In this document: positions 1,126 through 59,799 of the stretch, one piece after another
Layout: each line of letters begins with the position of its first letter
Numbering within the stretch: position 1 is the stretch's first letter
From: Nereocystis luetkeana
Lineage: Eukaryota; Sar; Phaeophyceae; Laminariales; Laminariaceae
Length of the DNA stretch: 64,000 bases
NCBI GenBank assembly: GCA_031213475.1
Contig: JARUPZ010000013.1
Coordinates: forward strand, 2,018,231 to 2,082,230
Direction of reading: 5' to 3'
Position numbers and translations under genes: made by a program
Notes under the pieces: model-generated
What the model saw: only the letters and a program-made list of their open reading frames with translations
The model's database searches: none
What the model was told of the DNA's origin: nothing

Positions 1126-1410
1126 GGTGCAAGCAGACCCAAGTGAGCCCCAAAGTCATGAGCGCGAGCACATGATAATAAGGCGCACACACCCATGCCG
1201 GCTTCTACTTTCCACCGGCTTCTGCGGACCACCTGCGGTTATTTTATACCAGGTACCGCCGTAGTAACTCACTGCGCGCGTAGAGCGTATGCTGACCTTC
1301 AAATCATGGGGCGCAAGCACATAATACACAAATCATAAGGCACACGGCACCCTTGCCGGTTCCAAGTTCCTACTTTCCAACGGCTTCTGCGGACTACCTG
1401 TGGGTATTAC

Positions 1411-1464
<54 letters not shown>

Positions 1465-1850
1465 GGTTGATGTTGTGGTTGTTGGTGTTGTTGTTGTTGC
1501 TGTTCTCACATTAACTCATCGCCACAACACATTGCAGTCCGTGATCGCAGGACAGGCTCCAATAAAAACTCTGGAGTGGAAGAAATACCTCGGCAACAAT
1601 AATGGCGAGCGAAGAATAATACACATGATAACTGAAGCACATCTACACCTCAGACAAAAAAATAAGTGAGGACCGTGCACGTACGTATCAGATACATGCG
1701 GTTATATACAGTAGTAACTTACTGCACCTGAAGCATATAAACGGGCGCAAGCACATAGCATAGGAAGAACAAAGCACACGGCACCCATGCATGTCGGTTG
1801 CAACTTCCAATTTTTCAACGGCTTCAGCGGACTACGTGCTGCTTTAAGAT
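1126..1850 (+). repeat. Three diverged direct copies of a ~120-bp repeat
   Basis: The segment GCGCAAGCACATA..., AAGGCACACGGCACCCATGC, CCGGTT..., TTCC...ACGGCTTCTGCGGACTAC occurs at about 1130-1240, 1310-1405 and 1743-1835. A GTT microsatellite lies between the second and third. Confidence 0.65.
1405..1505 (+). repeat. (GTT)n microsatellite
   Basis: About 100 bp of mostly GTT repeats, ending in GCTGTTCTCACATTAA. Its poly-Val translation is not a gene. Related GTT/GTTG tracts are at 360-470, 735-880 and 12900-13050. Confidence 0.9.
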
Positions 1851-2006
1851 TCTAAGTTTGCTGCCCGCGCAAAGAGTAGAGGATGCCGAAACTACAGAGT
1901 GCCTACGACCTATTCATAATGAGGAGCCGAACCTTCGTATGACGGGCTTTTGAAACTACTGCCGTATTACACGCAGGATAAGGGGCGTTTTTAACAACAA
2001 TGAAAA

Positions 2007-2212
2007 AACTTGCCAAAATAGCAAGTTTTTTGGAATTTTGGGCTTTCAAGTTTTGCTAAAAACTTGCCAAATGAAATAGCAAGTCCAAATGTCGAAAAAC
2101 TTGCCAACGAAGTGCTCGGGGAATATCCATGAAAAAGCTTGGCAAAAAACTTGCTATTTTGGCAAATCCGAATGTCCGAAAACTTGCTATTTTGGCAAGT
2201 TTTTTGCCAAAT
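2007..2212. repeat. Iterated inverted repeat of AACTTGCTATTTTGGCAAG
   Basis: The words AACTTGCCAAAATAGCAAG and their inverse recur at least four times in alternating orientation. They would form extended hairpins. No coding function is visible. Confidence 0.7.
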
Positions 2213-2681
2213 ATGTGTCGCTAAAAGCGACCCTAACACACCGGCTCTGACGATTTTTTCAAGCTGTTTTTTGTGGACGACGAAGATAAGCAAAGTAGAA
2301 AATAATACGCCGAGCGATGCGGCTTTGGAAAGGTTTCGTTCGGGATCTTTCCAAAGCTGCCTTTTTCGTTGTGTGGTCCATCCCTACAGCCTAGTTCTGG
2401 AGAGAATCGGCTCTGAATTGCGTGTTATTAGTGTACCTGATATACGGTATGATATATTTATGTATATACATTTATATATATACCTGGTGTATATTTTGGT
2501 TCGTTTATAGGTTTATACCCAGCCGTTTTTTGTTTTTTGATAGTCTTCGGATATTTCTAGGGCTCCAACACCTTCGTGTGACCACGGACTCCATGATTTG
2601 AGAGTTAAGGTAAGAAGAACAACAACCACGCTGTCCATAAGTGTAAGAAACGGTGTGTGTATATTTCTTCGTCTCCACCCC

Positions 2682-2828
2682 TTTAGAACAGCAGTCCCGT
2701 TTTTGGGACAAACCACTCAATTTCTAAGTAGTTTGTCCCCAAAACGGTTCGACCGTTCTGGTCGTTTTGGGGACAAACCTCTCAAATTCTAAGTACTTGG
2801 TTCCCAAGACGGGACTGCTGTCCTAGCA
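2682..2828. mobile_element. Foldback element family 2 (GCAGTCCCGTTTTGGG), two fused copies
   Basis: It has nested palindromes built from AGCAGTCCCGTTTTGGGAC, ACAAACCACTCAAATTCTAAG and the mirrored end. Two half-elements appear joined around 2745-2770. The family has a palindromic unit of ~88 bp. Confidence 0.65.
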
Positions 2829-4889: not shown

Positions 4890-6430
4890 ACGTATGTTAA
4901 ATCTCTGTTGGCCGTCGGAGCCGATGCAGTCGCGGAGGAGCCTCGAAAAGCGAGGATCCCTTGTAGCCGTCGTTACGGCGGACGTGAGCCGAGCAGAGTT
5001 CTCTCGTATGTTTAGCAAGGGGATGCTAGACCTACAGCAGGTGTCTGACTCGATGGAGAGGACTTAGGTTCCGCCAGTCTTGCGGCGAGATAACCCCCTG
5101 ATAGCAATCTCCCGGGGACGGGTCAATACCGTCTATGTGTGAGACCGCTCGTGGCCCGAGATCTGATACTGCTTGACCGTTGACGTGTCGTTTCGCGCGT
5201 GCGTGATACGAGATCTACGATAGGTATCTCCGATCCTGTGTTCCACCTTGCGCCCTCTTTATTCACCTCAAGCCCATCTTAGCTGGGGATGGTCTTGTGG
5301 CGGGCATCGGGAGGATGATTATTACGGGGGACCATAGTCAATAGGACCTACGCTATACAAAAAAAAATATGTATTTGCTTCTTTTTACTAACCGTATTTG
5401 GTCCTATTTACTATGGCCCCTACGTAATAATTCAGGAAGCAGGGTGCTAATCTATCGGATTGAGGCACATCAGTTGCTATATGCTTGGATCCACTCCTTA
5501 TAGCTGACGTGTTTAGTAAACACGGGTGTTGAGTAAACACCGGTCTAGCGAAGATGCGCAGATTTTCGAGCTTGCTCGCTGACAGCGTATGCTGGAGTAG
5601 TTCGGGGAATTCCAAATCTTATCTGAACGCACTAGTTCCGTGTGGCCACACGTACTGTTGGCGCGCTCCTCGTGGTTTCTGTTCTGAGAACCACGGGCAG
5701 CCAAGCCATAATTTTCGTGATTTGTTGGGCTATCACGCGAAGTTGACTTGGTTGATCTAAGTGCATCAACTGGTGCCTTCGTTTTAAGCGGCGCGGAGTC
5801 GCGTGGCCCCCATTCCCTATGTGTTGGAGATTTGTTTCGAACAATTCTGTGACAAAACGGTGGAATTGCTGTGTTGTCCTAATTTTCGCCAAGTATTGGG
5901 CCGGGGCATGCAGTGAGATGCTTGTTACAGCCCCAGTACCGTGGGCACAACCTTTTTGTTAGCGTCTCCTTGCCCCGGCTAATCCCATCGGAATGCCGGT
6001 TAGGGTGCCCGTCAGATCATGATAGGTTGGCGAGCATGTTTGCCATGTCTGATGGTGGTACTCTCATCACCGTTGTTGACTCTTATGCCTACAGCTGAGC
6101 CAGCTGTGGTTTGCCAACTTGTTCGTGATTTTGTTTGCGCCGCTGAGCAAGCTGAGAACTTGTTAAGCGCTGTCTCAGTTTGTGCTCGTCCCTCGCCTGC
6201 TCTACGCTTCCGTTTCCCGAGAGAAGGGAGGGGGTGCGAATAATTTGGTTATTATCGCTATATGCAAACCTTCCTGGTCTCGGTATGCGGCCATAACTTG
6301 GTTACATTGGGGTCTTTCGTCTGCGCGATGCTCCAGGTCGGACTCCGGGCCGTACCCTCGAAGCCTCAGGCGGTACTTGTAGTTGTGGGGGGTTTTCTGC
6401 CAGGCTCACGTTTATGATCTACTGCCCTGT
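4890..6430. other. 3' flank of the retroelement, no gene seen
   Basis: A MITE lies at 5322-5427. The rest has only short frames with no recognised domain. It is moderately GC-rich and continuous in character with the retroelement. It could hold its 3' untranslated region and one LTR, but a second LTR copy to prove this is not in the window. Confidence 0.4.
5322..5427. mobile_element. 105-bp MITE, copy in retroelement flank
   Basis: The terminal inverted repeat is TTACGGGGGACCATAG...AATAGGACC, mirrored at the other end. TA direct repeats flank it (5320-5321 and 5428-5429), suggesting a Tc1/mariner-type nonautonomous element. Confidence 0.85.
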
Positions 6431-6997: not shown

Positions 6998-7560
6998 TTA
7001 TGAGCTAATTGGACGAACGGTAAGAGCGATGCCTAGTTGCGTTTTATCTATTGCGCTATGCGTGGCCAGCATGTTGTGCATGGTGGACTGTACGCGTTCT
7101 GATGCTGAATTGCCCTGAGGTCGATACGGCGTCTTTCGTGTCTTTTGGTATCCTAGAATTCGTTGCAAGTGGTATATTACCCTGTTTTCAAAGTCGGGGC
7201 CTTGATGTGAGTGCAAGGTCTCTGGTGGGCCGGAAATACCAATTATTCGTTCAATGATAGCACAAACTGCTGTGTCGGCCGCCTTATCACGTGCCGGCAG
7301 TAGCACTGCGAATCGTGTCAGCTGGTCCACCGAGAGAATACTTCGTATACTTTCATTCAACCTCTGCGGCCGAAGTTGATACCGATTTGTATTCCACCAA
7401 GTCAACCGATATTCTGTGAAACGGCCGCTCGACAGGCAAATGACCTGTCGGGGACATGGGTCTGATGTGTCCTGTTTTTCGTCGTTGATAAGCTCGGCAT
7501 TTTTCGCACCAATCTCGCACGCCGCGGCTTATGATAGGCCATCAACACTTCTGGCGGATC
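6998..7560 (-). pseudogene. Integrase zinc-binding tail and catalytic core
   Basis: In one minus frame near 7535-7440, WCEKCRAYQRRK and VERPFHRISVDLVEY are the end of the HHCC finger and the start of the DDE core. The frame then shifts. The stretch 7405-6998 carries HSHQGPDFENRVIYHLQ (usual SDxGxxF) and TPYRPQGNSASERVQ (usual TxYHPQTxGxxERxN with catalytic E). The shift and stops make it inactive. Confidence 0.85.
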
Positions 7561-8159
7561 TTGCTTAAGTAGGTCTGGGTACGAGGTCTTCTCCTGACAT
7601 GACGTGGTCGTGGTAAGCGTGCATAATAAGACCAGCAAGGGTTTCTGGTACCACCAGCTAATCGCGAAATGTGCTCCCTTTTCGAAGGTTCCCCGGAAGT
7701 TGCGATTTGAACAAATGTCAGTCTTGTACTGGATGGAAAAACATGGTTGTTTTCGTTTCTTTCTCGGGTATGAGCGCGTCTGCGTGCTGAGTGTTAACAA
7801 GGTACGGGCATTACTCTGCTGCTTGAGTCTGAGCGGAGTTTTTCTTGACCGACTGGACAAGAAAACAGTTGTCGCGCTCACGAAGACTGATTTCACCCTA
7901 AACAGCTCTCTATTGCTGCATACTGATCCTGGTTTTAAGCAGTTTGTCGGCGGAGATTTGGCAAAGACGAGGAGTTCGCGCTGTTCGTAGTTGAGGGTCA
8001 TCTGGTACGTGCCGGCAAATGGGTGCGAGGGACGGCACGGCGATTTTTTGCTGGTGCTCAAACGCAAACATTCGTTTCCGGCACATGTAGCCTACCGGGT
8101 TTGTGTTGGACGGTGAAATCATACGACTAACTGTGATGCGATTGCTAAGCGTGTTACAA

Positions 8160-8482
8160 TGTTCGATGTGTCTGGCATTGAGTATAGGTACCTTGGTGCC
8201 GCATGATCCGCCACACGCACAAAGTGTCGTCCCCATAAATAGGTAGGGCTGCCAGCGCTGTATTGTCAACACAACAGCGTAATATTCTGTGAGCGTAGCA
8301 GAGTGGTGGCGTTGGCGTTCGTTACAGCGTTGACTAAAGCATGTCGCTAATACGAGGTCGTCGCCTTTCTGCTGGGCGAGAAATGCCCCTGCGCCTGCCT
8401 CTGAAGCGTCAACGTATATCGCAAAGTCTTGACAACAATCGGGAAACTGTAGCACGGGCGCCTGGGTGAGCAAGTGTTTCAC
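8160..8482 (-). pseudogene. RNase H region
   Basis: Reads LQFPDCCQDFAIYVDASEAG, AGAFLAQQ and ATLTEYYAVVLTIQRWQPYL. This matches the Ty3/gypsy RNase H pattern with the DAS catalytic Asp and the E...A.V.....W..YL segment. It lies just downstream of RT after a frame change. Confidence 0.8.
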
Positions 8483-8683
8483 TATTGCGTACGCCTGGTC
8501 GTGTTCTGGGCCCCAACGTTTAGCACCCCCCTTGACGGCCTCGTGAGGGCTACCAGGGGTGCTATGATGCTATTAATACCTGAGTTTAGTACGAACTTGC
8601 GAACAATTTAACCATTCCCAATACTGACCGCAACTCCTTAATGGTTTTAGGCGTCGGCAGGTCAACTACAGCTTACCCAATCC

Positions 8684-9022: not shown

Positions 9023-9330
9023 CGTTATACTCCGACCGTGTCAAGTTGGCTTTCTAAGTTGGGCATAGCCCATGACTTTTTGTTCATTTTTTTTTTTTGT
9101 CGACCTGTAATCTACACAGAACCGAGGAGTGCCGTCTGATTTTGCGACTATAGTTTCTGCGTAACCCCAGGGACTAGGGCGCTGTTCAATGCTTCGATCT
9201 TCTTCCATTTGACTCACGCACTTGTCGATAGTCTCCTCGACGCGGGAGTTCCCCCGGTACGGGGTTCTGTCTACAGAGCGTGTTCCAGGTTCAAGAGGAA
9301 ACGTTGCTTCGGCTAGGGTGCATCTACCTA

Positions 9331-9435
9331 TGACGGGGGTCCATAGCTAATAGGACCTATGGTATACATAAAAACCTATATATTTGACCATTTTTACTAA
9401 CAACATTTGGTTCTATTAACTATGGTCCCCCGTAA
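9331..9435. mobile_element. 105-bp MITE, copy inside the retroelement
   Basis: The TIRs are TGACGGGGGTCCATAG.../...CTATGGTCCCCCGTAA, with TA on both sides. It is exactly 105 bp. It lies between the RT and protease regions, so it inserted after or during decay of the retroelement. Confidence 0.85.
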
Positions 9436-9751
9436 TAGCTCTTATCGCGACAGAGGAAGAACTCTTCTGTATTTTGTGCATAGCTCCAGCACTTGTGCGC
9501 ATTCGCCAGGTGTGAACGTGGTGTTATCAAATGATTTTGTAAGCGCCGCACGGAAATCGTTGCGCGTAGATTCTATTGTCCTGCTGTCGGTCTGAATTGC
9601 ACGGGCCGTGTTGTCTATACTACTGATACGGGTCCAATGTGTCCTAGCAACGAGTCCCGTTCTAAGTATACGTATTGATGGGACGGGTTCGTGGTTTGGA
9701 CGACTGCTGTTTTATTTGTGGCCGACCAATGGCGCACCGTACGAGCAACTA

Positions 9752-9856
9752 TTACGGGGGACCATAGTAAATAGGACCTACGGTACACACAAAAACCAAT
9801 GTAATTCCCTATTTTTACTATCAAGATTTGGTCCTATTCACCACGGTCCCTCGTAA
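9752..9856. mobile_element. 105-bp MITE, second copy inside the retroelement
   Basis: It has family TIRs, TA at 9750-9751 and 9857-9858, and a length of 105 bp. It lies only about 320 bp from the previous copy in the same orientation. Confidence 0.87.
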
Positions 9857-10309
9857 TATCATGAATTGAAAGACTTCTGGTACAGCGGACGATCCAAAGT
9901 CCTCGACCTTGACGATCAGTCGCTTCCAATAGCGCAGCAGTGGTTACGGCTGATGTTTTCACCGATTCTACTTGTACTGCCATCTCACTCTGAGGGGGGA
10001 TGCAGCATTTGTTTACCAAAAACACCGGTGCTGGTTCGACACGAGTATGGACTGAGACGACGGAGCACTGAGCTGTCGCGGTATTCTCGGGGTGTGCCGT
10101 AACGTTCACTCTACGGTGAGATGCTTAGATTTTGACTTGCTATGTTTTGAACAACAAATGCCCCGTGCTCCAATCGAGGACGCCTCCGAAGGCGTTCATG
10201 ATGGTGTTATCGAGTAGCATAATGTCTGGCCCTAAAGAAAACAACACAAGCGCCTCGACTGGTAGCTAACGTCAGTTCAAAAGGCACGTATCCTAACTTT
10301 TTGAGAGGC

Positions 10310-11645: not shown

Positions 11646-11671
11646 ATTTGTGAAGGCATTAGTCCTAAAGG

Positions 11672-13050: not shown

Positions 13051-13458
13051 TGGCCGCACGTGCTTATACTATTTTATGACGTACCAGGTACCAGGTGTAA
13101 GATATAATGTTGGTGATGTTGCTGTCGTTGTTCTCGCATGAAGGCATTGCTGCAGTGCAGTTTGTGGTCACAGCACAGGCTCCAATAAATCTGGAGTGGA
13201 AGGTTAGGCTTAAGGTTAGGATGTACCCTGGTATGACACTACTGCTGCATGTACTCTGTGCGCTTTGCAGCAATACTACAGCAGTATGTGCGATTTGTAG
13301 CATTTAGTAGACATGGCCTACGCATCATGATCCAGTACACTAACATCATGTACGTACGTGGGTTCATCTCTCACCGAGTTATATATATATACTATCAATA
13401 ATAGTACGACGGACTTTTTCTTGCATACCGGGTACCAGGTACCAGGTATTGTTTTTCC

Positions 13459-13640: not shown

Positions 13641-14283
13641 TGATACAAAAAAAAGAAGAAGCGACATCCCATACGTACCAGGCATTTCGGCATTAGTTTC
13701 ATTGATACTGGAAATCGGTGATAAGGTATACGTCGCACGTACACTATAAACAGTGTACCAGGTATACTGCGTACTCGTATATCATGTGAGTACGTATTGT
13801 GTATGCCCATTCCGTTCGCACTATTAATAAGAACGTAACGACATTTTATCTCCGGCAGCAATTGAACCTATCGGAGAGGCGCTACGTATGATGTATCTTA
13901 CCGTACGTACGTATGGCCACTTTATGCCTGCACCCCCGTTTACATACGCCTACAGGAGTGAGGTTTTAATATTTTTTATAGAGTCGAATCGTCGTTTGCA
14001 GTACGTCAGTCGTGTAGGAATATTTAGGAAGAAATATCCTGCTTTTTAAATACCAGGTACAAAAAACCATCCGTATGATAGCTACGGACTACCAGGTACA
14101 CAATTTGTCCCTGAACATGAGCACTGTTTTAATATTAATACTCTATGCGAAAGATCCTTATATTGAGGGACATGATGGCATTTCCGTGAGGAGCGTCGAC
14201 CTTACACAGGGGTGCGATCGATTTTCGGCGCTCGGTTTTTTCCAGAACGGGAAGGCTTAAAAAAATATCGAACAGGATCAAGC

Positions 14284-14650: not shown

Positions 14651-15779
14651 ACGGGAAAAACGAGCGCCGAAAAACGGTCGACATCAACCCTCTGCGAACT
14701 CAACGCTCTTTTTCCGGTAGGTTTAGGCGAGGCGCGTTTCGCCCTCTTTTTGATTCCGCGCCCCAAGAGAACAGACCGCGCCTATTGGTGTTTCATACGA
14801 CAGAGCAGTCAGTGGTGTACACCTGGTATCTATTTGTGCGATCACAGCGATACCAAAACGCATTTATTTTTCTTGATTCTTCCGGTTTATGGACCTGTTT
14901 TCACGCTGCTCTATTTCCTACCAGGTAGGTGTTTGTAATTTTCTACGGATGGTTATGTTGTACGAGCTGGTTCCAGCGACTCGCGTAAAACTCCACCTTC
15001 GGACCATAAAACAATGAATAATCTGAAGCTCACGAAACGCTACATATACCCCATGACCGCATCAATAAGGGAAACACATCGGTGAAGCTAGTTTTGGTGT
15101 ACGCGCTGTAGTTCTGTAGTTCGCGAGATATGGGGATTTTCCCTATTGCTCGGTTGGCGTTGGTGCGTAGAGGTTTTAAGCGGCCCATCGTAAAAATCCA
15201 TACCCTGGTAGAGTTCAGTCTTCAGGACTTATGTCGGTCAATACATCGAATAACTGGACGGTAGACGTGTTTACATGATCGTATCAACAAGCGGAAGGCG
15301 TCCGTGATACTAGTTTTTTTTCTGCGAGCCGTCGTACGAGGCTGTTGCGCGAATAGTCTGCCAAGTTGCTACTGTAGAACAATGTATAGAGCTCTTTGGA
15401 AACCCTTGGGGGAAAATCTGTCTTCCCGAGAAATCTCTTTCGCACTCTTCATTTTTTTCAGAGTTGAAATACGACACTTGGCGAGGTTGTTCCTCTTTAC
15501 AACACCAGCAGAAAACGAGGGGATTTTTTCATTCTTCATTTTTCTTCGTTGACGCGTCAGTCGGGGTCACAAGGCTGGTGAAAAGATCCCCCCCTAAACG
15601 TCAAATGCACCTTAGGAAGTATAAAACTAAAATGAAAGAAACCATCTCGTTGTTCGTTCGTAGGTAGTGAAAGCCAAATTTCGTATTCCAACTCTTCAAA
15701 AACCTGGGTGCAAAAGTCTGAAGAAATAATGTTCCGCCTGTCGCTGGAACCAGCTCGTACATGCCCAATGTTTCCAATA

Positions 15780-16630: not shown

Positions 16631-17190
16631 GGGGGTGTACTCGATAGGAGAGATGTACTCGATCTCATGCATGACCGTGGTCGTATGACTATAGACCCTC
16701 GCATCCCTACAAGGCCGGGACGGAGCATGTCGGGTTTTCACCGACCAGGCAGACATTGCTTGCACCAAGCGCGAAGCGCCGTGACGTGTCTGGCGAGTCG
16801 CATGAAGGGTGAGCTGCATCCTACTAAGAAGCGCTTTAGAGGCGGATTTTCTTGCATATGGATGACAGCATCAATGAAGTGATTTAATTTCTGGTATGGA
16901 CACTTCCTGAGACAGCAATGGGGTTAGTATGTAACTGCCTCGTGGGTGCCTCACCATATACACACTACGTGATACGATCACCCCCCTTGTGCGCAGTGAA
17001 GGTTCCCCCCGCACAAAAATGACCCAACTTGACCGCCAGCCGTGGTATCCGCCAAAAAAACAAAAAGAAACGAAAACGGTACCCTGGCTGTCTAGCTCAC
17101 GCAGTGAGTGGCGTGCTTTACAGCGTCGTTGCCAATCGACGCCAACCCAACCTATATATATACATATATATATACCAGGTATGTAATATA
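16631..17190 (-). repeat. ~500-bp dispersed repeat, reverse copy
   Basis: Reverse-strand copy of the same repeat. It has an extended AT-rich end that includes one TACCAGGTA motif (17173). It is bounded by G runs on this strand and sits in the centre of a large inverted repeat. Confidence 0.8.
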
Positions 17191-17888: not shown

Positions 17889-18182
17889 GGGCGCTACCTC
17901 TAGCAGGCAAGCACATTTGGCGCGGCCCCTATTACGGGGGGCCATAGCAAATAGGACCTACGTTACACACAAAAACCTACCAGGTATATATTTCCCTATT
18001 TTCACTAACAATATTTGGTCCTATTCTTTGGTCCCCCGTAATAGTAGGCAAGCACATTCGGCGCGACCCGTAGCGAGCAAGCACATTAGGCGTTACCCCT
18101 CGCAGGCAAGCACATTAGACGCTACCCCTATTGTAGTAGGCACGCACATTATGCGCCATCCCTACTGTAGTAGGCCAGCGCG
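17889..18182 (+). repeat. ~30-bp tandem repeat AGGCAAGCACATTAGGCGCTACC
   Basis: There are about six degenerate units with GGCAAGCACATT(A/T/C)GGCG. The MITE at 17932-18041 interrupts the array between units. Confidence 0.75.
17932..18041. mobile_element. 105-bp MITE carrying a 7-bp TACCAGGTA insertion
   Basis: It has family TIRs and a TA target duplication. In the interior, where sister copies read AACC-TA-TATATTT, this copy reads AACC-TA-CCAGG-TA-TATATTT. It is itself inserted within a ~30-bp tandem repeat. Confidence 0.87.
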
Positions 18183-19591
18183 CGTCCTGTGTGCGTTGGC
18201 AGGGATATCGATTTGGCTGTGATAGAGCGTTGGTGCTGTGTCTATTCACGGATACAAACAGCCAGGAATTATGGGGTACTGCTGCCATTCGGCGTAGGTG
18301 TGCTGTGCGTGCAGTTGCAACAACAGCCAAGACGCACAAATACGACCATATGTGCACGTTTGTGAACCGTTATTATTGAAAAGCTGGCTCCCTATGTTTC
18401 CTTCTTTTTTGGTGCTGTCAAAACGAAAAACTGGAAACAGGAAAATACACTACCAGGTATACTTTTGGGATGATCGAGGTCCGAGATCGGATATCATATT
18501 CAGGGGGAAACGCCTCCTCAATAATGCCGGGTATCGAATTCCGCCCGTGGTATCGGCGCCCAACGTAGGTTCTGATACCGGGAACCACTCACCTCTCTTC
18601 TTACTTCTTTTGGGCTTTGGGTACTCGGAAAGACGGTCAGAATGGCGAAATCCAGGTATACGGTAGTGGTATCTCTATATTACTCCCGGTACGTGCCAGG
18701 CCAATAAGCCAGCAGTTTTTAGCGGGCACCAGCACCCTTCTGCACCCTGCCACACTGGGCGATCCCATCTGTGCCGAGCGATGTTCACAGGCATCGTATC
18801 GGGCACCGGCATTGTGGGGGAACGCCTACTTTAAGTCACACGACTTTACGTACACCATCGACAACAGGAAGCGACTTTGGGTGCTAGGTTTAAGGGATGG
18901 TGCTTTCGGTTGTTGTTGCTGTTGGCCACACACTTCGTCACTGCCATAATAAGGAGGGTCTAGCCCGTGGTCTCACAAAGGCGCAAAGAGCTCCACGCCT
19001 CGGACAGATCATCTACAGATAGATCATAATCTAGATAATCTAGTTCTTCACCTGCCGTTGTGAGAGGTTTTGCGGGATCTGCATAGTACAGGTCCAATCC
19101 AGGAAACATGTGCTAGACCATGCGCTAGACCATCTGTATGATCTGTATGGTATGTATGATATGTGGCTGATCTACGAGCTCACTCACGTTGCCTGGAGGG
19201 AGCCGTGTATCCTCGTGACCTAGGACTTGTCTCCTGGGTTGGGTCTGTAGTAGACAGACCCTGCGGAACACATCAGAGCTGCGGGTTGGGATCAATCTGT
19301 AGATGATCTAGACCGTGATCTGTCATGGCGCGTGTCTACACCTGTTCGTGCTGCTGTTGATGTCTCGTGAGCCTGTGGATGGTCCCTTGGGGTGCGTCGA
19401 AGTGAGAGGTCAGAAGGAACCGTTTCTGTGCCTTCGCGATGACCGTTATTCTGCGATCGTCTTCGATGCTTCGCTCGGAGTCTGTCGAAGTGATGTCACG
19501 AGGGCCACCCGGGTGTGTGCTTGCATGTGCTCGCACTTACTAGTATTTAGTTAGTCTTTCAGATGGTTCCTTGGGGCATATCGGAGAGAAC

Positions 19592-19909
19592 TCGTAGCAA
19601 CTACTCGGCTGTGTTTCTAGATGTGCTTGCACTGCCAATTGTTTTGGTGGCTCTTTTAATGGGCCCTTGGGGGCCGTCAAGGTGACGTCATGAGGACCAC
19701 CCGGGTGCCGCGTCTCCACGTGCTCGTACTGCTTGATGTTATGTGAGCAATCGTAGCAACTACTCGGCTGTGTTTCTAGATGTGCTTGCACTGCCAATTG
19801 TTTTGGTGGCTCTTTTAATGGGCCCTTGGGGGCCGTCAAGGTGACGTCATGAGGACCACCCGGGTGCCGCGTCTCCACGTGCTCGTACTGCTTGATGTTA
19901 TGTGAGCAA
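19592..19909 (+). repeat. Near-identical 159-bp tandem duplication within the satellite
   Basis: The units 19592-19750 and 19751-19909 both start TCGTAGCAACTACTCGGCTG and end TGATGTTATGTGAGCAA. I saw no clear difference by eye. Confidence 0.9.
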
Positions 19910-20539
19910 TTGGATTGTCCCTTGGTACAGAAAGTGGTTAGGTCAGAAGGACCACTTGGCTGCGTGACTAGACGTGGTTGTGCTGCCTAATTATTTGGCG
20001 ACCCTTTCGATGCGCCCTTGGGGGTCTGTCGAGGTGACGTCATCGGGACCCCACCCGGGTTATGTGCCTACACGCGCTACGCACTGCTTGATTTTTTGTG
20101 AGCCTCTAGATGGTTCCTTGGGATCTACCGAAGTGAGGCCATGACGACCACCCGACCGTGTGTCTCTATGTGGTAGCACTTTAATATACGCTGACCCTTT
20201 GGGTGTTGACGTGATGTCATAACGACCACCCGGCTGCGTGTCTACCCTTGCTTGAGCTGGCTACTACCTGGTAATCTGTGACGGCTCTTGGTGTGTCCTC
20301 GTGTCTATCGAAGTGAGATAGGAACAGCCACCAGGGTGAGCTTCTATACTCAACTAAGCTAGATATTTTTGATATGACTGGTTCCATGTATCCTTGGGTC
20401 TGTTGACCGTAAGTCCTAAGGACCACCCCGGTGTTTTGTCTGCCCGTGGTTTGAGCTGGCTGTTCTTATCTCCACGTTTGATTTGTCGTCGGGTCTATCG
20501 AACAGAGGGCATAAAGGGCTATCCAGCTGTGTGTGTCTA

Positions 20540-21180
20540 CATGTCCCGTTCGTCCACTACCCGGGTACCTCGCGGGTATTATCCGGGCCTGTCACTACCC
20601 GTCCGGGTGCGAGTAATACCTCGTACCCGCCGGGTTATTGGACCCGAGTACCTAAGTACCCGGGTACTCGAGTGCCCGGTTAGAATACGTGTCCCCGGTT
20701 CGAACCTTCCCTCTCCATACCTCCTAAAAGCTATATACAGTACTTGATTAACAAATAATGTCGAGGTCCTCAACACTCACACCAACATGTTATATGTTGG
20801 AAAAGGCGGAGGGTTCACAGGCACCCCGGGTACCCGACATGAACGAGTACCCGGGTACCCGGCATGAACAGGTACCTGGGTATCGGACAAGAGCGCACGT
20901 GGTATATTTCTTTTGGGGTTAGGCGTGTTCCACATTGATTCGGTGCTTGTTAGTTGTCCTGCGGGTGTGAAATTTTCATGAGTTAGGGTACCCGGGTACC
21001 GTGGTACCCGCACTACCCTTGGTTCTTGTGCCTGAACAAACGAGTACCCGGCCACGGGCACGGGTAGTAACTCTGGACAAAGTCCGGGTACCCCTTCGGT
21101 CCGGGTATCCGGCTACGGCTACGGGTACTACGTCCGGAAAAAGTCCGGGTACCCATTTGGTCCGGGTACCCGACGAGGTT
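20540..21180. repeat. GGGTACC/CCCGGGTACC palindrome-rich block
   Basis: Dense CGGGTACCCG-type words recur in both orientations (20555-20690, 20820-20885, 20985-21175), separated by ordinary sequence. Confidence 0.8.
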
Positions 21181-21498
21181 CAACTCTAGCCTACACCTTG
21201 CACGCCGGCTATGCTTTGCAACTCTTTACGTGCCTCCTTGGGGGCTATCGTTGTGGGGTGATATCGACCGCCCAAACGTGCGGATCCGTGCTTGCTCTGG
21301 CTGGTGTTATGTTCCACACCCTTTCGACGTATCCTTGGTGTCTGTCGAGGCGGTGTCATGAGGGCCACCCGGGTGTGAGTGTACATGTGGCAGTGCCCGC
21401 TTAGTCTTCCGTTGTCTTTTCGATGTGTCCGAGGCGTGGCCATAGTAGCCAGAGCTCATCATATACGCAAAAAACTATATATTCCAGTATTTTTACTA

Positions 21499-21603
21499 TT
21501 GCGGGGGACCATATTAAACAGGACCTATGGAACACACAAAAAGCTATATATTTTACTATTTTTACTAACAATATTTGGTCCTAGTTACTATGGTCCCCCG
21601 TAA
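21499..21603. mobile_element. 105-bp MITE copy
   Basis: The TIRs begin TTGCGGGGGACCATA and end ACTATGGTCCCCCGTAA. TA lies on both sides (21497-21498, 21604-21605). It is 105 bp long and sits inside the satellite region. Confidence 0.86.
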
Positions 21604-23310: not shown

Positions 23311-23615
23311 GGCAAGCTGCGTGATGTGATACGTCGGCCGCTCGTGTTCCGCGTCCCCCAGTTTCCTCTAGAAGCATGGTGGTCGTTGTTGTTGGGTGCA
23401 CGACGTAGTCCCGTTGCCAGCTCGAAACGGGAATGCTGTTCTAAAAGGGTGAGCATGATGGTTGTAAATATCCCGATGCCATGCTGTATTGGTCGGCGCC
23501 AATGATGTCTTAACATGTCTTACGATTCCCCCTTCGCGAGATTTGCACTCTGGTGTGCGAGGTATCCACGCCGGCATGCCAATTACGGTATATAGCTGGT
23601 GATACACAACTACTA

Positions 23616-23720: not shown

Positions 23721-23784
23721 TAATAGCTGTACTTAGTATAGGTCTAGTATACCACCATATTGTGTCGATTTACACCGCGTCTTA

Positions 23785-25774: not shown

Positions 25775-26045
25775 CTTATACTGGGATATACATACTGGTA
25801 CTTTGTATATTCATTATACATACATCGTATATACATTATATATGCATCGCATCTACACTATATGAATATATACTTCGTATCAACACATTTTATATACTTC
25901 GTTCGTATATACCTGGTACAATATATGTACTTCGTACATACATCGATTGCCAGGTATATATACATATGTCGTATATGCATTATGATGTGTATACTTCGTA
26001 TATACATTGTACGAGGGGTGTAGTAAGGATATATAATGTATTTAC
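25775..26045 (+). repeat. AT-rich minisatellite TATACTTCGTATATACAT
   Basis: Degenerate units of ~18-20 bp with (C)TTCGTATATACAT words and one TACCTGGTA motif at 25910. Confidence 0.7.
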
Positions 26046-44761: not shown

Positions 44762-44947
44762 GATTGGCGTGCGGAGATAATTTTCTCGTTTTTTGTAACG
44801 ATTCTCTTGATGTCACTTTTTCAGCACCAAGGTTTTTTTACTCCACGAGCACTTTTTCGCGTGCTGAAGTGTCCCTACGATTTATAAGAGTTTACCTGGT
44901 ACAGCAGTTAATGCCGTATATTCTCATTGTACGCGGTAGTCCTACTA
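44762..44947 (+). other. Probable 3' untranslated region of the importin gene
   Basis: This AT-richer sequence follows the stop. No AATAAA is present. A TGTAA word lies at 44794-44798, which serves as a poly(A) signal in some algae; I do not claim that here. A TACCTGGTA motif is at 44893, and a MITE starts at 44948. Confidence 0.4.
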
Positions 44948-45051
44948 TTACGGGGGACCATAGTAAGTGGGACCAATAATATCAGTAAAAAAAGTAAAAT
45001 ACATAGATTTTTGTGTCTACCGTGGTTCCTGTTTAATATGGTCCCCCGTAA
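44948..45051. mobile_element. 105-bp MITE copy downstream of the importin gene
   Basis: The ends are TTACGGGGGACCATAG and ATATGGTCCCCCGTAA. The right TA duplicate has decayed to AC. The interior is in reverse orientation. It lies about 190 bp after the stop codon. Confidence 0.83.
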
Positions 45052-48515: not shown

Positions 48516-50560
48516 CATGCTCCGCACGATTTGGTCTTCTTCAAGATGTACACGGTAGTCGTACTCTTATTTCGTGCGCTCTTGCGAGTGATCAGGTCAC
48601 CAAACCACCCATGCGTAGTCTGACTTAACACACCACGTTTCACAAAAGAGCTGTCTAGATCAGGTGGTCTCGGCTCTTGGAGACGAAACCCATCCGGAAT
48701 AACCATTTCGATTGCCTCATCCTCCCGTGGCATGTCGTCTTCGTCGTCCAGCAGGGTCAGCGTTTTTTTCCCGTTGTCAGAGGCATCTGCATGCCAAACG
48801 ATGAGAGTGTGGGTGCAAACAAAATTGAAAAGAAGGCCGTCCTTCACGATGTTCAAAGGTCAAACTCTGGGACAATTCCCGAGAAGAGAACCACACAGTG
48901 CAATACTGCTGTGAGTCGAAAAGTTAGGAAACGTCTTGTCAAGTACCCACTAAACACTGAAAATACTGTATCTAGTTACCTGTACAGTAAACCACCTTAA
49001 AGAGCTAAACTAAACGAGACTAGATACAACAACAATAAAACATGAAACCCGTATACCATCACCTTCTACCAAGCTGTCCTCGTATTCCTCCTCGCGGTTC
49101 TCGTCCTCGTCCCCACTGTGCTCGCCCACCTCATCGCTATCCTCGTCCCCGTCCCCACTGCCCCCGTCCTGCCCCCCTTCTCCTTGCTTTTGCTCCCCGT
49201 CCCCTGACCCATCCGCTTCCTCTCCAACTCTCCTCACCCCCCCCCCCCCCCCTCCCGCGGCCATCCCCATCACTTTCTCCATCAGCCCCTTGCACATCGA
49301 TTTCCTCCCCACCGCCCCCCCCCCCCCCCCTCCCCCTGTTTTATATAGATTGGATTGGCGTCGGTTGGCAAGGACACTGTAAAACATGCCACTCACCACG
49401 TGAGCTAGACAACCAGGGTACCATTTTTTGTTTTTTGGCGGTCGCCCACAGCTGGTTGTCAAGTTAAATCATTTATGCGAGGTAAATAACCTTCTCTCCC
49501 TGCAAGTGGGAATGATCGTATCACGTCGTGTTCAAGGTAAGGCACCCAAGGGGCAGCTACATAACACTCCCATTGTTGTCTCTGGAATTGCCTACACTGG
49601 AAATTAAATTATCTCATTGAAGCTGTCATCGACATGCAAGTCCGCCTCACAAGCGGTTCTTAGTAGGATGCGGCGCATTCTTCATGCGACTCGCCGGACA
49701 TCTCACGGCGCTTCGCGCTTGGTGCAAGGAATGGCTGCCTGGTCGGTGAAAACCCGACATGCTCCGTCCCGACATTGTAGGGATGCGAGGGTCTATGATC
49801 ATACGACTACGGCCGTGCATGAGCTCGAGTACATCTCTCCTATCGAGTACCCCCCTACCCCCCCCCGGCCCCTACCACCTCGTCCTCGCTTGCATTGTCC
49901 GTGAACGCCAAAGGCTCCGTCAGCCCCTCCAGGTTGATTCGCACGTCACCTGTCCCGTCCGCCGTCATTAGGCTCCCTGTATTCTCGAACAGGCGACACC
50001 TGCAGCCAGCGCGGTTGTAGACGGTGTTCACGGCCGTTGCGACCCACTTGGTGAGCAAGACGCGCCGATCTGATTCATTCAGCGCGTTGATCTCCCATCG
50101 TTCCAGATTTTCTCCGTTATCAAGCCATAGTAGGTCGAGTTGCTTCCCAACCTCGACCTTGATGAATGCCCCAAGGCCTGCATCGACGGGCTGCAGTGCG
50201 CCCCTGCACCCTCCAGGGTAAAGCCACACCGGCGAGTTGCACTCCTTCTTGATGTACCTGGTATGCCTTAAATGTGTCCGTTGTCTGTCCGCGCAAGATA
50301 TCCAGAGTCAGCAGCGATTGCTCCGCGGACATCCTACCCCGGGTTTGCATAAGACTCTCGCGAGATCATTTTTCAGCCCACTTCATGCAGTAGTAGTCGC
50401 TGTCCGCCCACGCGTTTCTCTGGGAGAAAAACGTCCACGCGAGAGTCATAGGCCTTCTTCCCCGGTGCCTCGAAGCATTATTTCTATTTGCATGCTTGCA
50501 GAGGGGAAAGGATATTGTTCGGCGAAACAAATAAGAAACAAAAATACAAAACGCCACCTG
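48515..50560 (-). pseudogene. pogo-type DDE transposase (DDE_1 family), broken
   Basis: Minus-strand pieces follow the DDE_1 order. AWADSDYYCMKWAEK is at about 50460-50370. LLTLDILRGQTTDTFKAY, with the second catalytic Asp, is at about 50320-50255. GCRGALQPVDAGLGAFIKVE, with the third catalytic Asp, and ESDRRVLLTKWVATAVN lie in 50229-49960. An acid-rich stretch follows (49230-49090). A C-terminal part, VIPDGFRLQEP...HGWFGDLITRK, is at 48856-48515. A 7-bp TACCTGGTA insertion at 50255 shifts the frame. A ~500-bp repeat (about 49345-49850) separates the core from the tail. Such transposases cut at TA dinucleotides. There are close-looking relatives in oomycetes and brown algae, by memory. Confidence 0.8.
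49345..49850 (+). repeat. ~500-bp dispersed repeat inside the DDE transposase pseudogene
   Basis: It is a full copy bounded by C runs (49318-49330 and 49848-49866). It separates the transposase core from its acid-rich tail. Confidence 0.8.
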
Positions 50561-54957: not shown

Positions 54958-55716
54958 CCTGAGGAACTTTCGAAAAAGTAGACGCAAGTCTATCGTAGCA
55001 CGACTCACTATTTATAGTATTAATAGAGCATAAAACTAGTTTGATCTTCGTCTACGCCATTTGATGCAGTTTTGGGCTCGGAGAGGCATCATGGCGACTG
55101 CCAGGTATGCATCTACAAACAAGGTGAAATGTGCATTTCCGTTTATTTTATGCATGTATGTATGTACGAAAATTAAATGCAAACCGCTCGGCGTTGTGGG
55201 CTCCAACGCCTGCTTTTCTAAACACATTCGAACCAGCTAAATAGTAAGAAGTGTAATACCTGGTACCCTCTTAGGATTATCAAAGAAATATAAGCCCAGT
55301 TTTTAGCAGAATGAAGTGGCGCAATAATGGATGCAGTGCACAGCACGATGCTGCCGTTTGACGGGGCAAACAAATGTCACAATGCATGGATATGCCGATT
55401 ACACGCAGTCGAGAGCTGAGCGGGGCTTTCCGAACTGACAGGGGAAAAGACAGTGGCGACTACAGTGCGAGTATGACTTGCGTGGATATCTTACTAATAT
55501 TTGCTAGGCAACAAACAGCGATTTCGATGTAGTCACCACACATATATAAATCCTTTCCCTCTTCTGTGTTTTGTAAATAAATCAATAGTAATAGTATAAT
55601 ACACACTACAGCTGCTAGCAGTAGATTACCTGATAATTCATTACCTGGTATTATATTACAAACATTAGTTTCATTCACCCCTGTACATACATAGTATATA
55701 CCCCTGCGCCTCGGAG

Positions 55717-55930: not shown

Positions 55931-56158
55931 AAGGAGTGACACTGTGTTACACTGCGTTAATACTGTAACTCAATATTGTCACCACCTACCTGGTACGTCA
56001 TTAATACATTACAACCGCAACCGAATTTCGTTAAAACAAAATATGCTTTCGGACCTCCTGGGCTCCTGGGGCTCCAGCACCTTTCGTGTGACCACGGACT
56101 CTTTGATTTGATGACTGTTGATAGTTAATGTGAGAAGAACAACATAATACTCGAGGAC

Positions 56159-56252: not shown

Positions 56253-56261
56253 CACTTGTTG

Positions 56262-56440
56262 TTGTTGTTCTCACATTAACTCTCTGACGAAGGAGTCCGT
56301 GGTCACACAAAGGTGCTGGAGCCCTAGGAAGATCCGAAAAACGAAAAAAATCGAAAATTCGGCTGCCTCAAAATACACGAGACGGAAAAAGCGCACACAA
56401 GATAAAACCAATGTGCAAAACTGAACTAACATGGCCGCGG
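56262..56440 (-). repeat. Dispersed repeat family B with (TTG)n end
   Basis: It starts TTGTTGTTGTTGTTCTCACA and continues GAGTCCGTGGTCACACAAAG, AGGAAGATCCG and CTAACATGGCCGCGG. It matches 12115-12375 in reverse. Confidence 0.6.
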
Positions 56441-57350
56441 GTATATCCTCTCAACTATAATATAGAAGAGTACCACTGCCCACCCCTGACTCTAACCCTA
56501 ACCATAGACACAGCATCAACAACCCATGCCCTCTTGCAATATTTTTAAAATTACAGGGCTCACTCCGGTATACGCCTTTTTTAGATTGGTATCGTTTACA
56601 GCGGTATCCAGCCACCACGGTGCTGCACGGTAATTATTGGATGGTAACTGGCCACCTTAGTACTCGTCGGTGCAGGAACCGGCTACCACGGTAGGTAATA
56701 CACGGTAAAATAATGGCGCGCCAAGCAGGCGGTTCCGCGGGGATGGTCGAAAAGCTTCAAAGCAGGCAATGGGCGGGCGGGAGGCGCCCGAACATATACT
56801 CTTGGCGCTCCCGCCGTGACGGAACACACGAAGCCTGGTGACTCTCTGGAGGCCCAAGTGGAGCTCATGGTACGTATTATACGTACAGTGAGAGAACAAC
56901 AGCAACAACAACAACAACAATAACCCTAAAACAACAAAACAATTCAGATTTTGGAGGCCACAGGCTTGATGTTTATAAGGCGCATTAAAAAAAAAGGGTT
57001 TTCATGGACAAAACACCGCTCGTGGCGCGAGTTTACTTACTCGGTTTTAGTATGTATGTACCTGATTTGGACCCAAATGGATCAGGTATAATATACCTGA
57101 TTATGGCCACCGCCCAAAAACATGACAGGCTTGTTTCCAGTAAAAGAAACCGTTCAGAACGAAAGCAGTTTTAAAGTATAATCGCCGAAACAAATGTATA
57201 CTGGTAGTCGCCAAGAGAGAATTGAACCCTGAGGCTGGTCTATCAAAATTGACCTACTCACCCACTGGCGTAAATGGTCATATCGAATTGAGGTGTCAGC
57301 AGAAATTCATTTGACTGTACGGTAATTATTCGGAACTGAACATTTGCGCG

Positions 57351-57694
57351 TTTTTTTTTTTTTTTTCTCATCCCATTCATTATCTTCGCACATCTTCTCC
57401 TTTCTCTCCTTCCAACTCGTAACTCAGATCCGGAGTCACATAGCAGCAGGCTCTTCTCCCCCCTTCCCGCTATGGTACGTGCCTTGATTTTTATCGCGAG
57501 AAGATTTTAGCCTTTTCTTCCCTCCTCGTCGACTCGCATCGAATTGTGCCTACCCACGCTGCAAGGCGCTCTCAACAATTGAATCCTTTTTTATTTTTGC
57601 AAATAAAGTCAAAGTCCGACCCACCTGGGGCTCGAACCCAGGACTCAAACAAGTAGAATTCGAGGTTAACCACTTGAACCACCGGGGCGACCGG
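57351..57694 (-). repeat. tRNA-derived SINE with poly(A) and ~42-bp flanking duplication
   Basis: The minus strand begins with a tRNA-like head: A box TGGTTCAAGTGG and B box GGTTCGAGCCC in a perfect 5-bp T arm. The acceptor stem does not pair. A ~270-bp body and an A tail follow (the T run at 57351-57366). A 42-45 bp sequence from TTCATTTGACTGTACGGTAA to CATTTGCGCG stands directly on both sides (57306-57350 and 57702-57743), as a target-site duplication would. Transcription by RNA polymerase III is expected for SINEs. Confidence 0.75.
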
Positions 57695-57744
57695 CTCTAT
57701 CTTCATTTGACTGTACGGTAATTGGGAACTGAACATTTGCGCGT

Positions 57745-59430
57745 TTTTTGGTTGGGTGTTGACGACAAACCACAGAAATAAATGCCGATATTTTCATGGT
57801 AATTGTTTGGACGGGAGTGGGATGACATGATTCTCTCGGTAGCGATTTGGGTGGGAATGGGAGAACGTGATTTGCTTGGTAACGGTTTGGATGGGAACGG
57901 TAATTGCGATTTTTCACGGTAACGTACCGTTTACCAAATACAGTAGTAGTTTTACCGTGATAAAATGATCGAAGTAAGCCCTGTAAAATTATGTAAGAAC
58001 AGCTGTGAGAGTCTTTATCTCAAACTCATCTTTGCAAGCTGTGTGTGATACTTCGATCGCGCGTACTAACGGTATCGCGTCTCCAAAAATTTAGAGGGCA
58101 ACAGCCTAAGATAGGTGGTACACCTGTTCCATTCGAGCCAACAACAGGTAGGTACATAGTAGTGAAACCAAGTCTATCGGGTCGTTTTGGCCGTCAGGAA
58201 TCAATAAAACATGTACCTGGTATTGTTTTGCGCATGAACAGCAGTGACCATTCATTGAGGAAATTGCATCTATCTCGTATGTATGTAAAAAAACTTCAAA
58301 TAAATGCGAAGCATTCGCCTTAATTTGTGAATTCTACGACTGGTTTCGTGACCACTCTCGCTCTTCTTGCGTACCACCAGTAACGGACAAATCACAATAG
58401 AGCCAGCGTATATCGCTTTTTGCGCCCACTCGAAGGCACGAGATGGAGCATGACCGTTCTGACGAGCTCCTCTAACAGGGCTGGCCAAGGGGTTTCGCAG
58501 GATAATTTTGGTTATCTGATACACCACATGGTTCTGGAGATACGGCTTGGTTCTCATTTTAGGCTTCGTTCCCATTTTTCCGATTTGTCTGTTCAGTGGT
58601 ACTACCGTAGCCACATCGTTAGCACAGGTGCAAAACCTCAGTAGTATAGTATCAGGTTCAATGTGAGGGAACTGCTCGCTACCCATACCATCTCGTGATG
58701 CAGCACCAGTACTTCAATGAATGGGAAGAGACCCCGTCCGCCATAGCCAAAGTACCTGTGGCACCCCCCCTCGTTGCCCAGCTGAGAGGCCTCAACCATC
58801 CTCGGGGAACCGCTTGCACACGGCGGAAGGGCGTTTCCTCAGCGAGCTGTAATGCATAGTAGAAGGGAGCCCAGGGAGCCCACCTCGACGCGGGGTGCGG
58901 CGGACGAATTGCAGTCTGTGCCCATCGTCCTGTGTACGAGCGTATCATTCGTACATATTTAAGCTGATCTACTGCTGTAGTGGGTCGTACGTACTACTAC
59001 TACTGCTGTACACGCAATGTGGTGATATTTTCGTGTGGAGTATTATAGGAGACAGTCAGTGTAATTATGTCCTCTGACTGGCCCTATATTCGGCAAAATC
59101 AGTGAAAAGCTAGACAAAGTAGACAAATCTAGGTGCCTGACCCCTTCGAGCAAAAACAACAGGTAGGTTGTGAAGCTGGGCAATCGCGGGGCTCCTGGCG
59201 TGTGATTTGTGCATGGTTTCAGCGTGTACCCATTTATTTTTGGAATGGACCAGGTATACATACGTGCTTTTGGCTAAAACCCAAAAATTTGAAGTCTAGG
59301 TATTCCCACCACGGAGTAAATCATCAAGCCATTTATTTAATGTTCCCACCCACATAGAACTGTTTTATCTGTTTGCTCGGTCCTTGCTCCTTGCTCCCGA
59401 GATGCATGCTATTCTGCTGTCTGACGTTGG
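57745..59430. other. No gene seen
   Basis: Short frames only. One TACCTGGTA motif at 58214 and a dispersed-repeat segment at 58005-58075. Confidence 0.5.
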
Positions 59431-59799
59431 CCGTCAAAACCAAGGCCACAGCAAGCAGTAATCGCATGCATCTGTTTTCTTGTAGACTCTAGACGGCAGA
59501 ATACAACATACCTGGTACATACAGTAGTAGGCGTAGAAAAGGCTACACGCCCTCAAGCCCGAAGTGTGACGTGAGGCTGTACAGAAGGCCCCGGAAAAAG
59601 GGTTTAATTGATAGAGGACGGGGTGGAGGCCTACACGAGGAAGTGTCACGACGCGGACAGGCGCACTGCGGCAAAGCAACACGCGACGGCTGCAGGCGCG
59701 ATATGGACCGTTAACACCTATACGCGCAGTGAGGGGGGAAATGGGAGCATCCTGCCCACAGTAAAAAGAGAGCCAAGGAAGATTTTGTTTAGGTGTATC

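What the first reader, a model, noticed from the sequence alone, without database searches (positions are those of the whole stretch)
1247..59517. TACCWGGTA is a dispersed 7-bp insertion scar, massively over-represented
Seen: 20 exact TACCAGGTA/TACCTGGTA words, starting at 1247, 13082, 13433, 13440, 13756, 14051, 14090, 14919, 17173, 17978, 18451, 20265, 25910, 44893, 50255, 55257, 55642, 55987, 58214 and 59509. A 9-mer plus its reverse complement is expected about 0.5 times in 64 kb at equal base frequencies. Two internal alignments (next findings) show a plain TA on the empty allele and TA-CCWGG-TA on the filled one. Inference: a micro-insertion or excision footprint, TA duplicated around a palindromic CCWGG. 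Tc1/mariner/pogo elements duplicate TA and leave a few terminal bases on excision, so an element with ends starting CC(A/T) would fit. None occurs inside the importin coding exons I defined. CCWGG is also a possible cytosine-methylation context.
Basis: partly seen in the sequence, partly recalled or inferred. Interest (0 to 1): 0.88.

Follow-up and report, generated by a model that had tools for sequence, protein, structure and literature searches.

The report
Excision scars littering a brown alga

Summary
The window's genome (465 Mb; brown alga, importin 85% identical to Laminaria digitata) holds 182,395, against 1,744 for the word read backwards. They are insertions: copies of a ~110-bp MITE show a plain TA against TA-CCWGG-TA at several positions. 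At one MITE hotspot 2,064 copies carry an insertion and 9,130 are empty; of the first 100 insertions 61 are exactly +7, with +6, +8 and +14 next. Targets share a palindromic preference around TA. I read this as the footprint of a TA-specific cut-and-paste element repaired by end joining; the A/T centre would be one mismatch in an otherwise self-complementary 5-nt overhang. Tc1/mariner overhangs are 2-3 nt, so 5 nt would be a new variant. The donor is not found: no TA-CCWGG element seen in 264 kb, and the pogo elements I could delimit begin CAG. The A-then-T block order in the window did not recur on contig 1.

The parts
1247..1255 (.). scar TACCAGGTA
13082..13090 (.). scar TACCAGGTA, followed in register by TACCAGGTG at 13089 (decayed tandem)
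13426..13448 (.). triple tandem TACCGGGTACCAGGTACCAGGTA; two exact scars at 13433 and 13440
13756..13764 (.). scar TACCAGGTA
14051..14059 (.). scar TACCAGGTA
14090..14098 (.). scar TACCAGGTA
14919..14927 (.). scar TACCAGGTA
17173..17181 (.). scar TACCAGGTA in a TA repeat
17929..18045 (+). MITE copy (TIR TTACGGGGG, TSD TA) that carries the scar at 17978
17978..17986 (.). scar TACCAGGTA at the MITE hotspot; 41 of 47 gapped alignments to other copies lack exactly 7 bases
18451..18459 (.). scar TACCAGGTA
20265..20273 (.). scar TACCTGGTA; one weak 7-base-gap alignment (71%), partner without TA
25910..25918 (.). scar TACCTGGTA
44893..44901 (.). scar TACCTGGTA
50255..50263 (.). scar TACCTGGTA
55257..55265 (.). 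scar TACCTGGTA
55642..55650 (.). scar TACCTGGTA
55987..55995 (.). scar TACCTGGTA
58214..58222 (.). scar TACCTGGTA
59509..59517 (.). scar TACCTGGTA
13224..13233 (.). probable variant scar TACCAGGGTA or TACCCTGGTA (+8)
   Evidence: the variant recurs at the MITE hotspot
15201..15210 (.). probable variant scar TACCAGGGTA or TACCCTGGTA (+8)
659..667 (.). probable decayed scar TTCCAGGTA in a MITE copy

Best explanation
Each TACCWGGTA is an excision footprint. A cut-and-paste DNA transposon that targets TA (the IS630/Tc1/mariner/pogo way of working) inserted and duplicated the TA. It was later cut out with staggered cuts that left the first 5 bases of its tip, CCAGG (or CCTGG), as single-stranded overhangs on both flanks. 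The two overhangs anneal through four C:G pairs and one A:A (or T:T) mismatch, end joining seals them, and the mismatch is resolved to either base, giving TA-CCWGG-TA. Less tidy joins give the minor forms CCGG, CCA, CCAG, CCAGGG and so on. Re-insertion into a TA of an old scar gives the tandem copies. Shown: insertion at TA, the length spectrum, both centres at the same site, tandems, the target preference. Inferred: the transposon, its tip sequence, the 5-nt overhang, end joining. Confidence in 'footprint of a TA-specific cut-and-paste element' 0.72; in the 5-nt-overhang detail about 0.5.
For: Genome-wide excess 182,395 against 1,744. Filled/empty: among 56 MITE copies in 264 kb, 8 carry exact TACCWGGTA at five consensus positions, each at a TA of the consensus; relative to the consensus five are +7, one +14 (tandem), one +8, one +5. 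At the hotspot AAAAACC|TA|TATATTT 2,064 copies have an insertion (0 for the reversed pattern) and 9,130 are empty, 18.4% filled. Insertion lengths for the 100 listed of 2,064: +7 61, +6 10, +8 7, +14 6, +13 3, +4 3, and ten others of +3 to +17. Letters were visible in 17 of these 100: of the nine +7 rows seen, eight are CCWGG and one CCGGG; also CCGG, CCA, CCAGGG, two tandem-like forms, a single C, one TA-repeat variant and one unrelated 17-base insert. T-centred copies at the hotspot number 429, and both centres occur in both MITE subfamilies in the list of 100 of 925 (by eye). Tandems 7 bp apart: 11 in 264 kb (4 of 11 mixed A/T) and 8 in the first 100 on contig 1 (3 of 8 mixed), so at least the mixed ones are not plain slippage copies. 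Target preference: A at -6/-3 (T at +3/+6) fraction 0.468 in 86 isolated scars against a mean of 0.269 and a maximum of 0.378 in 3,000 random TA samples. Other TA scars occur: a TATTAATA site with a 6-base gap in 4 of 4 alignments, and TACAGTA sites with 5-base gaps in 1 of 2 and 5 of 8; TACAGTA fits the CAG-tipped pogo elements present here. Mechanism of overhang-derived footprints: PMC7827188 (passages).
Against: No donor: no TA-CCWGG...CCWGG-TA element recognised in 264 kb beside 134 scars. Known Tc1/mariner stagger is 2-3 nt (PMC7827188, PMC2170065, passages). 182,395 surviving footprints is far beyond anything I know of (recalled, no survey made). At the hotspot T is the minority (19 of the 61 exact +7 rows in the first 100; the other 42 are A or other centres), so some filled MITEs may be copies of filled MITEs rather than fresh events. 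TACCATGGTA (2 in 264 kb against 0.25 expected) and TACCATA (61 against 34) would also suit a 3-nt overhang. CCWGG core changes are fewer than MITE decay predicts, TA changes about as many: unexplained. Not all filled sites give +7 in alignments: of 17 exact-scar sites with gapped partners, six show 7 in most (30 of 45 at the lowest) and one (20265) in its single weak partner; one inside TATATA shows 5 in 49 of 53; one shows mixed gaps (7 in 6 of 27, 8 and 4 in 9 each); eight have a single partner with a gap of 4, 5, 6 or 11.
Confidence: 0.72

Rival explanations
1. Footprint of an ordinary mariner-type element with a 3-nt overhang CCA (tip CCA...), mostly joined so that the two terminal A's face each other: TACC-A/A-GGTA.
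For: TACCATA/TATGGTA 61 against 34 expected and TACCATGGTA 2 against 0.25 in 264 kb; a CCA scar at the hotspot; 3-nt overhangs are the rule for mariner and Sleeping Beauty (PMC7827188, passages).
Against: The dominant product would rest on no base pair at all, yet 61 of 100 hotspot insertions are exactly +7; +5, the length of a 3-nt footprint, was 2 of 100.
Confidence: 0.15
2. The 7 bases are inserted directly in one step by an enzyme (for example a transposase carrying a 5-bp tip remnant, or a templated end-repair product at a TA break), with no full-length element ever present at the site.
For: No donor recognised beside 134 scars in 264 kb; very uniform sequence; 18.4% fill of one hotspot.
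Against: I know of no enzyme that does this (recalled); the +6, +8, +4 and +5 variants look like joined breaks; other TA scars in the same genome match the tips of elements that are present.
Confidence: 0.08
3. A highly iterated palindrome that arises by substitution and is kept for a function (as proposed for the cyanobacterial HIP1 octamer, recalled), for example a protein or methylation site.
For: Palindromic but for its centre; extreme abundance; core decays less than MITE C/G positions.
Against: 7-base length differences at TA, tandems, +6/+8 variants: substitution cannot do this.
Confidence: 0.02
4. Most hotspot copies descend from a few MITE masters that already carried the scar, so independent events are far fewer than the count.
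For: T is the minority centre at the hotspot (19 of 61); hotspot filled at 18.4% against about 0.94% of all TAs in 264 kb (134 of 14,250).
Against: Both centres, second-TA positions, tandems and length variants are spread over both MITE subfamilies in the 100 listed of 925 (by eye); most scars lie outside MITEs (8 of 56 MITE copies hold an exact scar, against 134 scars in all).
Confidence: 0.03

Closest known systems
Sleeping Beauty and mariner excision footprints (Tc1/mariner)
   Same: TA duplication; remnant of the tip overhangs between two TAs; central A/T ambiguity as in the Sleeping Beauty footprint TAC(A/T)GTA (that letter form is recalled; overhang-equals-footprint is from PMC7827188, passages); palindromic A/T-rich target preference.
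   Different: 5-nt core instead of 2-3; CCWGG tip not matched to any element seen here; 182,395 exact copies in one genome.
pogo-type elements of this genome (DDE_1; TIRs CAGTGGGGGGCCC... and CAGTACCGGCCCGC...)
   Same: TA-flanked, inverted repeats, DDE_1 transposase.
   Different: Tips begin CAG, predicting TACWGTA scars, not TACCWGGTA.
Stowaway-like MITE of this genome (TIR TTACGGGGGACC)
   Same: TA target duplication, seen in a nested copy; extremely abundant.
   Different: Tip TTA; its own insertion targets prefer C at -1 (13 elements), unlike the scars. It is the substrate that reveals the scars, not their source.
Mariner-Tc1 families of Ectocarpus (PMC12477816, passages)
   Same: Brown alga; 17 families, almost 12,000 copies, most non-autonomous.
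   Different: The main text has no word beginning 'footprint', 'excision', 'MITE' or 'Stowaway'; tip sequences not seen.

Membership tests
Tc1/mariner/pogo (IS630-type) excision footprint | Insertion at TA with TA on both sides of the remnant | tested here: met
Tc1/mariner/pogo (IS630-type) excision footprint | Remnant of 2-4 bp (range given in PMC7913693, passage) made of the element's tips | tested here: not met
   dominant remnant is 5 bp (61 of 100 at +7); tips unknown
Tc1/mariner/pogo (IS630-type) excision footprint | Length variants from imprecise end joining | tested here: met
Tc1/mariner/pogo (IS630-type) excision footprint | A donor element with matching terminal repeats in the genome | tested here: inconclusive
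   none recognised in 264 kb or in 15 DDE_1 loci; most of the genome could not be read
Tc1/mariner/pogo (IS630-type) excision footprint | A TA-targeting DDE/D transposase gene | tested here: inconclusive
   DDE_1 28 matches, DDE_3 0 (control rang in 3 of 14), Transposase_1 0 but its control rang nowhere; none linked to CCWGG
Tc1/mariner/pogo (IS630-type) excision footprint | Palindromic target preference around TA | tested here: met
TTACGGGGG MITE of this genome as donor | Tip letters equal the scar | tested here: not met
   tip TTACG, scar CCWGG
HIP1-like iterated palindrome | Arises without a length change | tested here: not met
   7-base length difference
Methylation site (Dcm-like CCWGG) | Cytosine methylated | not testable with these tools
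   no methylation data

The most novel reading that the evidence does not exclude
The donors are missing because this alga removes them: a TA-bounded element family is cut out so completely, perhaps by a developmentally programmed excision in the sequenced life stage, that the assembly shows only closed scars, 182,395 of them, each made with an unprecedented 5-nt overhang. The mutations carried by many scars (53 TA-transition forms, about 9 expected by chance, beside 134 exact ones in 264 kb) argue that most are old and inherited, which lowers but does not exclude this.
Probability: 0.06. Interest if true: 0.95.

Novelty: new variant of a known kind. Interest (0 to 1): 0.72.

Why it matters
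Footprints are normally seen one by one in assays. Here one genome appears to hold a fossil record of about 180,000 events, one per 2.5 kb, with filled and empty copies side by side in a MITE family. That would let one measure end-joining outcomes, mismatch resolution, target choice and element turnover over evolutionary time, and would ask where an element that active has gone. If the overhang is really 5 nt, it extends the known range of TA-specific transposases.

Tried and rejected
Strand or replication-linked A/T order: rejected as general, although the 264-kb run test is nominally low. Splice-site reading (CAG|GTA): considered because TACCAGGTA looks like joined splice sites; rejected since both centres occur at the same oriented hotspot. 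CA/TG as alternative targets: the excess of TACCWGGTG/CA forms is roughly what TA mutability in the MITE predicts (6.7% transitions at TA against 3.1% at CC/GG). pogo elements as donors: tips CAG; two of the copies (L032, L041) have CCAGG|TA on their left flank, but L037, L040, L042, L043 and L029 do not, so CCAGG is flank, not tip. TIR scan of L033-L036, L038 and L039 gave nothing usable; L031 had only the general scan and the CC-tip scan. One search compared 7,474 end pairs; 73 reached the score and I saw the best 25. One of those, 195327-197938 of the 264-kb string, has exact scars at both ends and a shared ACAGGGCAA; it is single-copy there, about one such pair is expected by chance (my estimate, not computed by a call), and I did not take it as a donor. 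Literature: searches found no description of this scar in the listings shown (15 of 119, 12 of 332, 12 of 344, 12 of 301, 8 of 8, 7 of 7, 5 of 5, 10 of 477 papers); passages were seen in PMC12477816, PMC9976928, PMC7913693, PMC7827188 and PMC2170065, no paper in full; the library holds open-licence PMC papers only. One search was a failed script (no rows) repeated; outputs were cut and seen in part. The genome-wide count of TACCATGGTA was requested and never answered.


Full report
What is there. The 20 words are exact and far above chance in the window (0.38 expected). The window lies in a 465-Mb genome (contig 13, 2,018,231-2,082,230) that holds 182,395 of them against 1,744 for the word read backwards. 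The importin reading frame at 42599-44761 gives 26 protein hits; all that carry an organism name are brown algae (Laminaria digitata 85%; Ectocarpus 45-75%), and the best unnamed hit is 93%.

It is an insertion. In 264 kb around and including the window I found 134 exact words and 56 copies of a MITE with ends TTACGGGGGACC and TA duplication. Eight of the 56 hold an exact word, at five consensus positions (23, 33, 49, 53, 93), each where the consensus has a TA; five are +7, one +14, one +8, one +5. Other copies hold TACCAG, TACCTG, TACCGG or TATGG before the TA (the TATGG case could also be a plain tandem duplication). One search found gapped partners at 17 exact-scar sites. At six of them most partners lack exactly 7 bases: 41 of 47 (window 17978), 40 of 46, 19 of 21, 17 of 18, 30 of 45 and 3 of 3; the first five are MITE copies, the last another repeat. 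Window 20265 has one weak partner with a 7-base gap but no TA at the join. Against this, one site inside TATATA shows 5 in 49 of 53, one shows mixed gaps (7 in 6 of 27), and eight have a single partner with a gap of 4 to 11. Only alignments with a gap of 3-16 at the word are counted there.

Genome-wide hotspot. AAAAACC-TA-N(1-16)-TATATATTT occurs 1,039 + 1,025 times and never in reversed form. The empty AAAAACCTATATATTT occurs 4,548 + 4,582 times. So 18.4% of intact hotspots hold an insertion, against 0.94% of all TAs locally that hold the exact word (134 of 14,250); the first figure includes a few inserts that are not scars. Of the first 100 listed (contigs 1 and 2), 61 are +7, 10 are +6, 7 are +8 and 6 are +14. 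Letters were visible in 17 of the 100; of nine +7 rows among them eight are CCWGG and one is CCGGG. The T-centred exact form occurs 429 times, and 19 of the 61 are T, so A is the commoner centre there, at most about 2:1; genome-wide the two must balance because the word is its own reverse complement apart from the centre.

Tandems and targets. Eleven pairs lie exactly 7 bp apart in the 264 kb, four of them with different centres, and eight among the first 100 on contig 1, three mixed. Mixed tandems need two events or a duplication followed by a mutation. Around 86 isolated scars the flanks prefer A at -6 and -3, a pyrimidine at -2 and a purine at -1, mirrored on the other side. The combined A/T score is 0.468 against at most 0.378 in 3,000 random samples of TA sites. 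This resembles the palindromic preference of Tc1-type elements (the Tc1 consensus CAYATATRTG is recalled) and differs from the MITE's own targets (C at -1; 13 elements, which one search counted once per strand).

How it probably works. Sleeping Beauty and mariner nick three bases inside the tip, leave 3-nt 3' overhangs, and end joining turns these into the footprint (PMC7827188, passages); the general range is two to three nucleotides (PMC2170065, passages). For a tip CCAGG and a 5-nt stagger, the two overhangs pair except for A against A in the middle. Resolution to A or T gives exactly TACCWGGTA in both versions, and removal of the mismatch gives TACCGGTA (16 in 264 kb against 4 expected). 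A 3-nt stagger (CCA) can give the same word only by facing two A's with no pairing, which makes its dominance hard to explain; but TACCATGGTA and TACCATA are in slight excess, and the genome-wide count that would decide did not complete. The 5-nt detail is therefore an inference.

Where is the donor? A scan of TA-bounded inverted pairs in 264 kb (8 identical tip bases, at most 3 mismatches in 20, 40-6,000 bp apart) found no CCWGG element (three pairs starting CC, two between different MITE copies and one a 79-bp pair). A scan of nested insertions (173 candidate clusters, read by eye) and a tip-directed scan (73 of 7,474 pairs over the threshold, 25 seen) gave none that I would call a donor. 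By family, DDE_3 gave 0 of 30 candidates, Transposase_1 gave 0 with a silent control, so no evidence either way, and DDE_1 gave 28 matches. I read 16 of these 28 places in 15 loci (L029-L043). Four loci have TA-flanked inverted repeats at both ends (L032, L037, L040, L041) and three one such end (L029, L042, L043), all beginning CAG; the rest gave no usable ends. Such elements predict TACWGTA scars, and TACWGTA is indeed in excess (78 against 35) with 5-base gaps at two sites (1 of 2 and 5 of 8 alignments). TATTAATA, as the TTA-tipped MITE might leave, is in excess too (52 against 1.5) with one site showing a 6-base gap in 4 of 4 alignments. So this genome appears to keep scars from several TA elements, which makes the footprint reading of TACCWGGTA more credible although its own element is unseen.

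Age. Beside 134 exact words there are 53 with one TA transition (about 9 expected) and 35 with one core change (about 22 expected). TA changes are about as many as MITE decay predicts; core changes are fewer. Most scars therefore look old and inherited; the core deficit is not explained.

Verdict. Real, insertional, and most likely an excision footprint; donor unknown; 5-nt overhang and abundance unusual. The block order of centres in the window is a local fluctuation. Novelty: a new variant of a known kind. No description was seen in the listings of eight literature searches of an open-licence library, most of them capped.

Noticed in passing
window 5319-5428, 9328-9437, 9749-9858, 17929-18045, 21496-21605, 23613-23722, 44945-45051: Copies of a very abundant ~110-bp MITE (ends TTACGGGGGACC, TA duplication); 56 copies in 264 kb, its central 16-mer 9,130 times genome-wide.
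   Followed up: partly
window 8571, 12136, 12264, 13822, 14133, 29798, 45793, 51245, 55018, 62108: TATTAATA is about 35-fold over-represented in 264 kb (52 against 1.5); at one site of the 264-kb string (41519) 4 of 4 alignments lack 6 bases: perhaps the scar of the TTA-tipped MITE.
   Followed up: partly
L032 1552-4163; L037 1037-3225; L040 923-3155; L041 909-2887: Two pogo-type element families with TIRs CAGTGGGGGGCCC and CAGTACCGGCCCGC; L029 and L032 share stretches at 99.7-100% identity; in L041 the element sits in the right TA of a TACCAGGTA scar.
   Followed up: partly
L031 1-6201 (contig 34): Two DDE_1 matches of equal score in opposite orientation, about 2.4 kb between them, with exact inverted arms of at least 60 bp.
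   Followed up: no
window 1247-59517: Centres of the 20 scars run A x11 then T x9 with the switch between 18451 and 20265; not repeated on contig 1.
   Followed up: yes
window 6998-8566, minus strand: Remnants of a retroelement: RT RNase H domain (E 5e-21) and integrase core (E 3e-5, below Pfam's cut-off), in separate reading frames.
   Followed up: no
window 19472-22616: Array of diverged repeats (many spacings near 78-99 bp or multiples) with a 159-bp unit duplicated at 99% (19586-19903).
   Followed up: no
window 40880-41136: Stretch with 5-base periodicity (AAGGT/AAGGC-like repeats) upstream of the long importin frame.
   Followed up: no
264-kb sample: TA dinucleotides in MITE copies show transitions about twice as often as CC/GG (6.7% against 3.1%), which suggests little C-methylation decay.
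   Followed up: no
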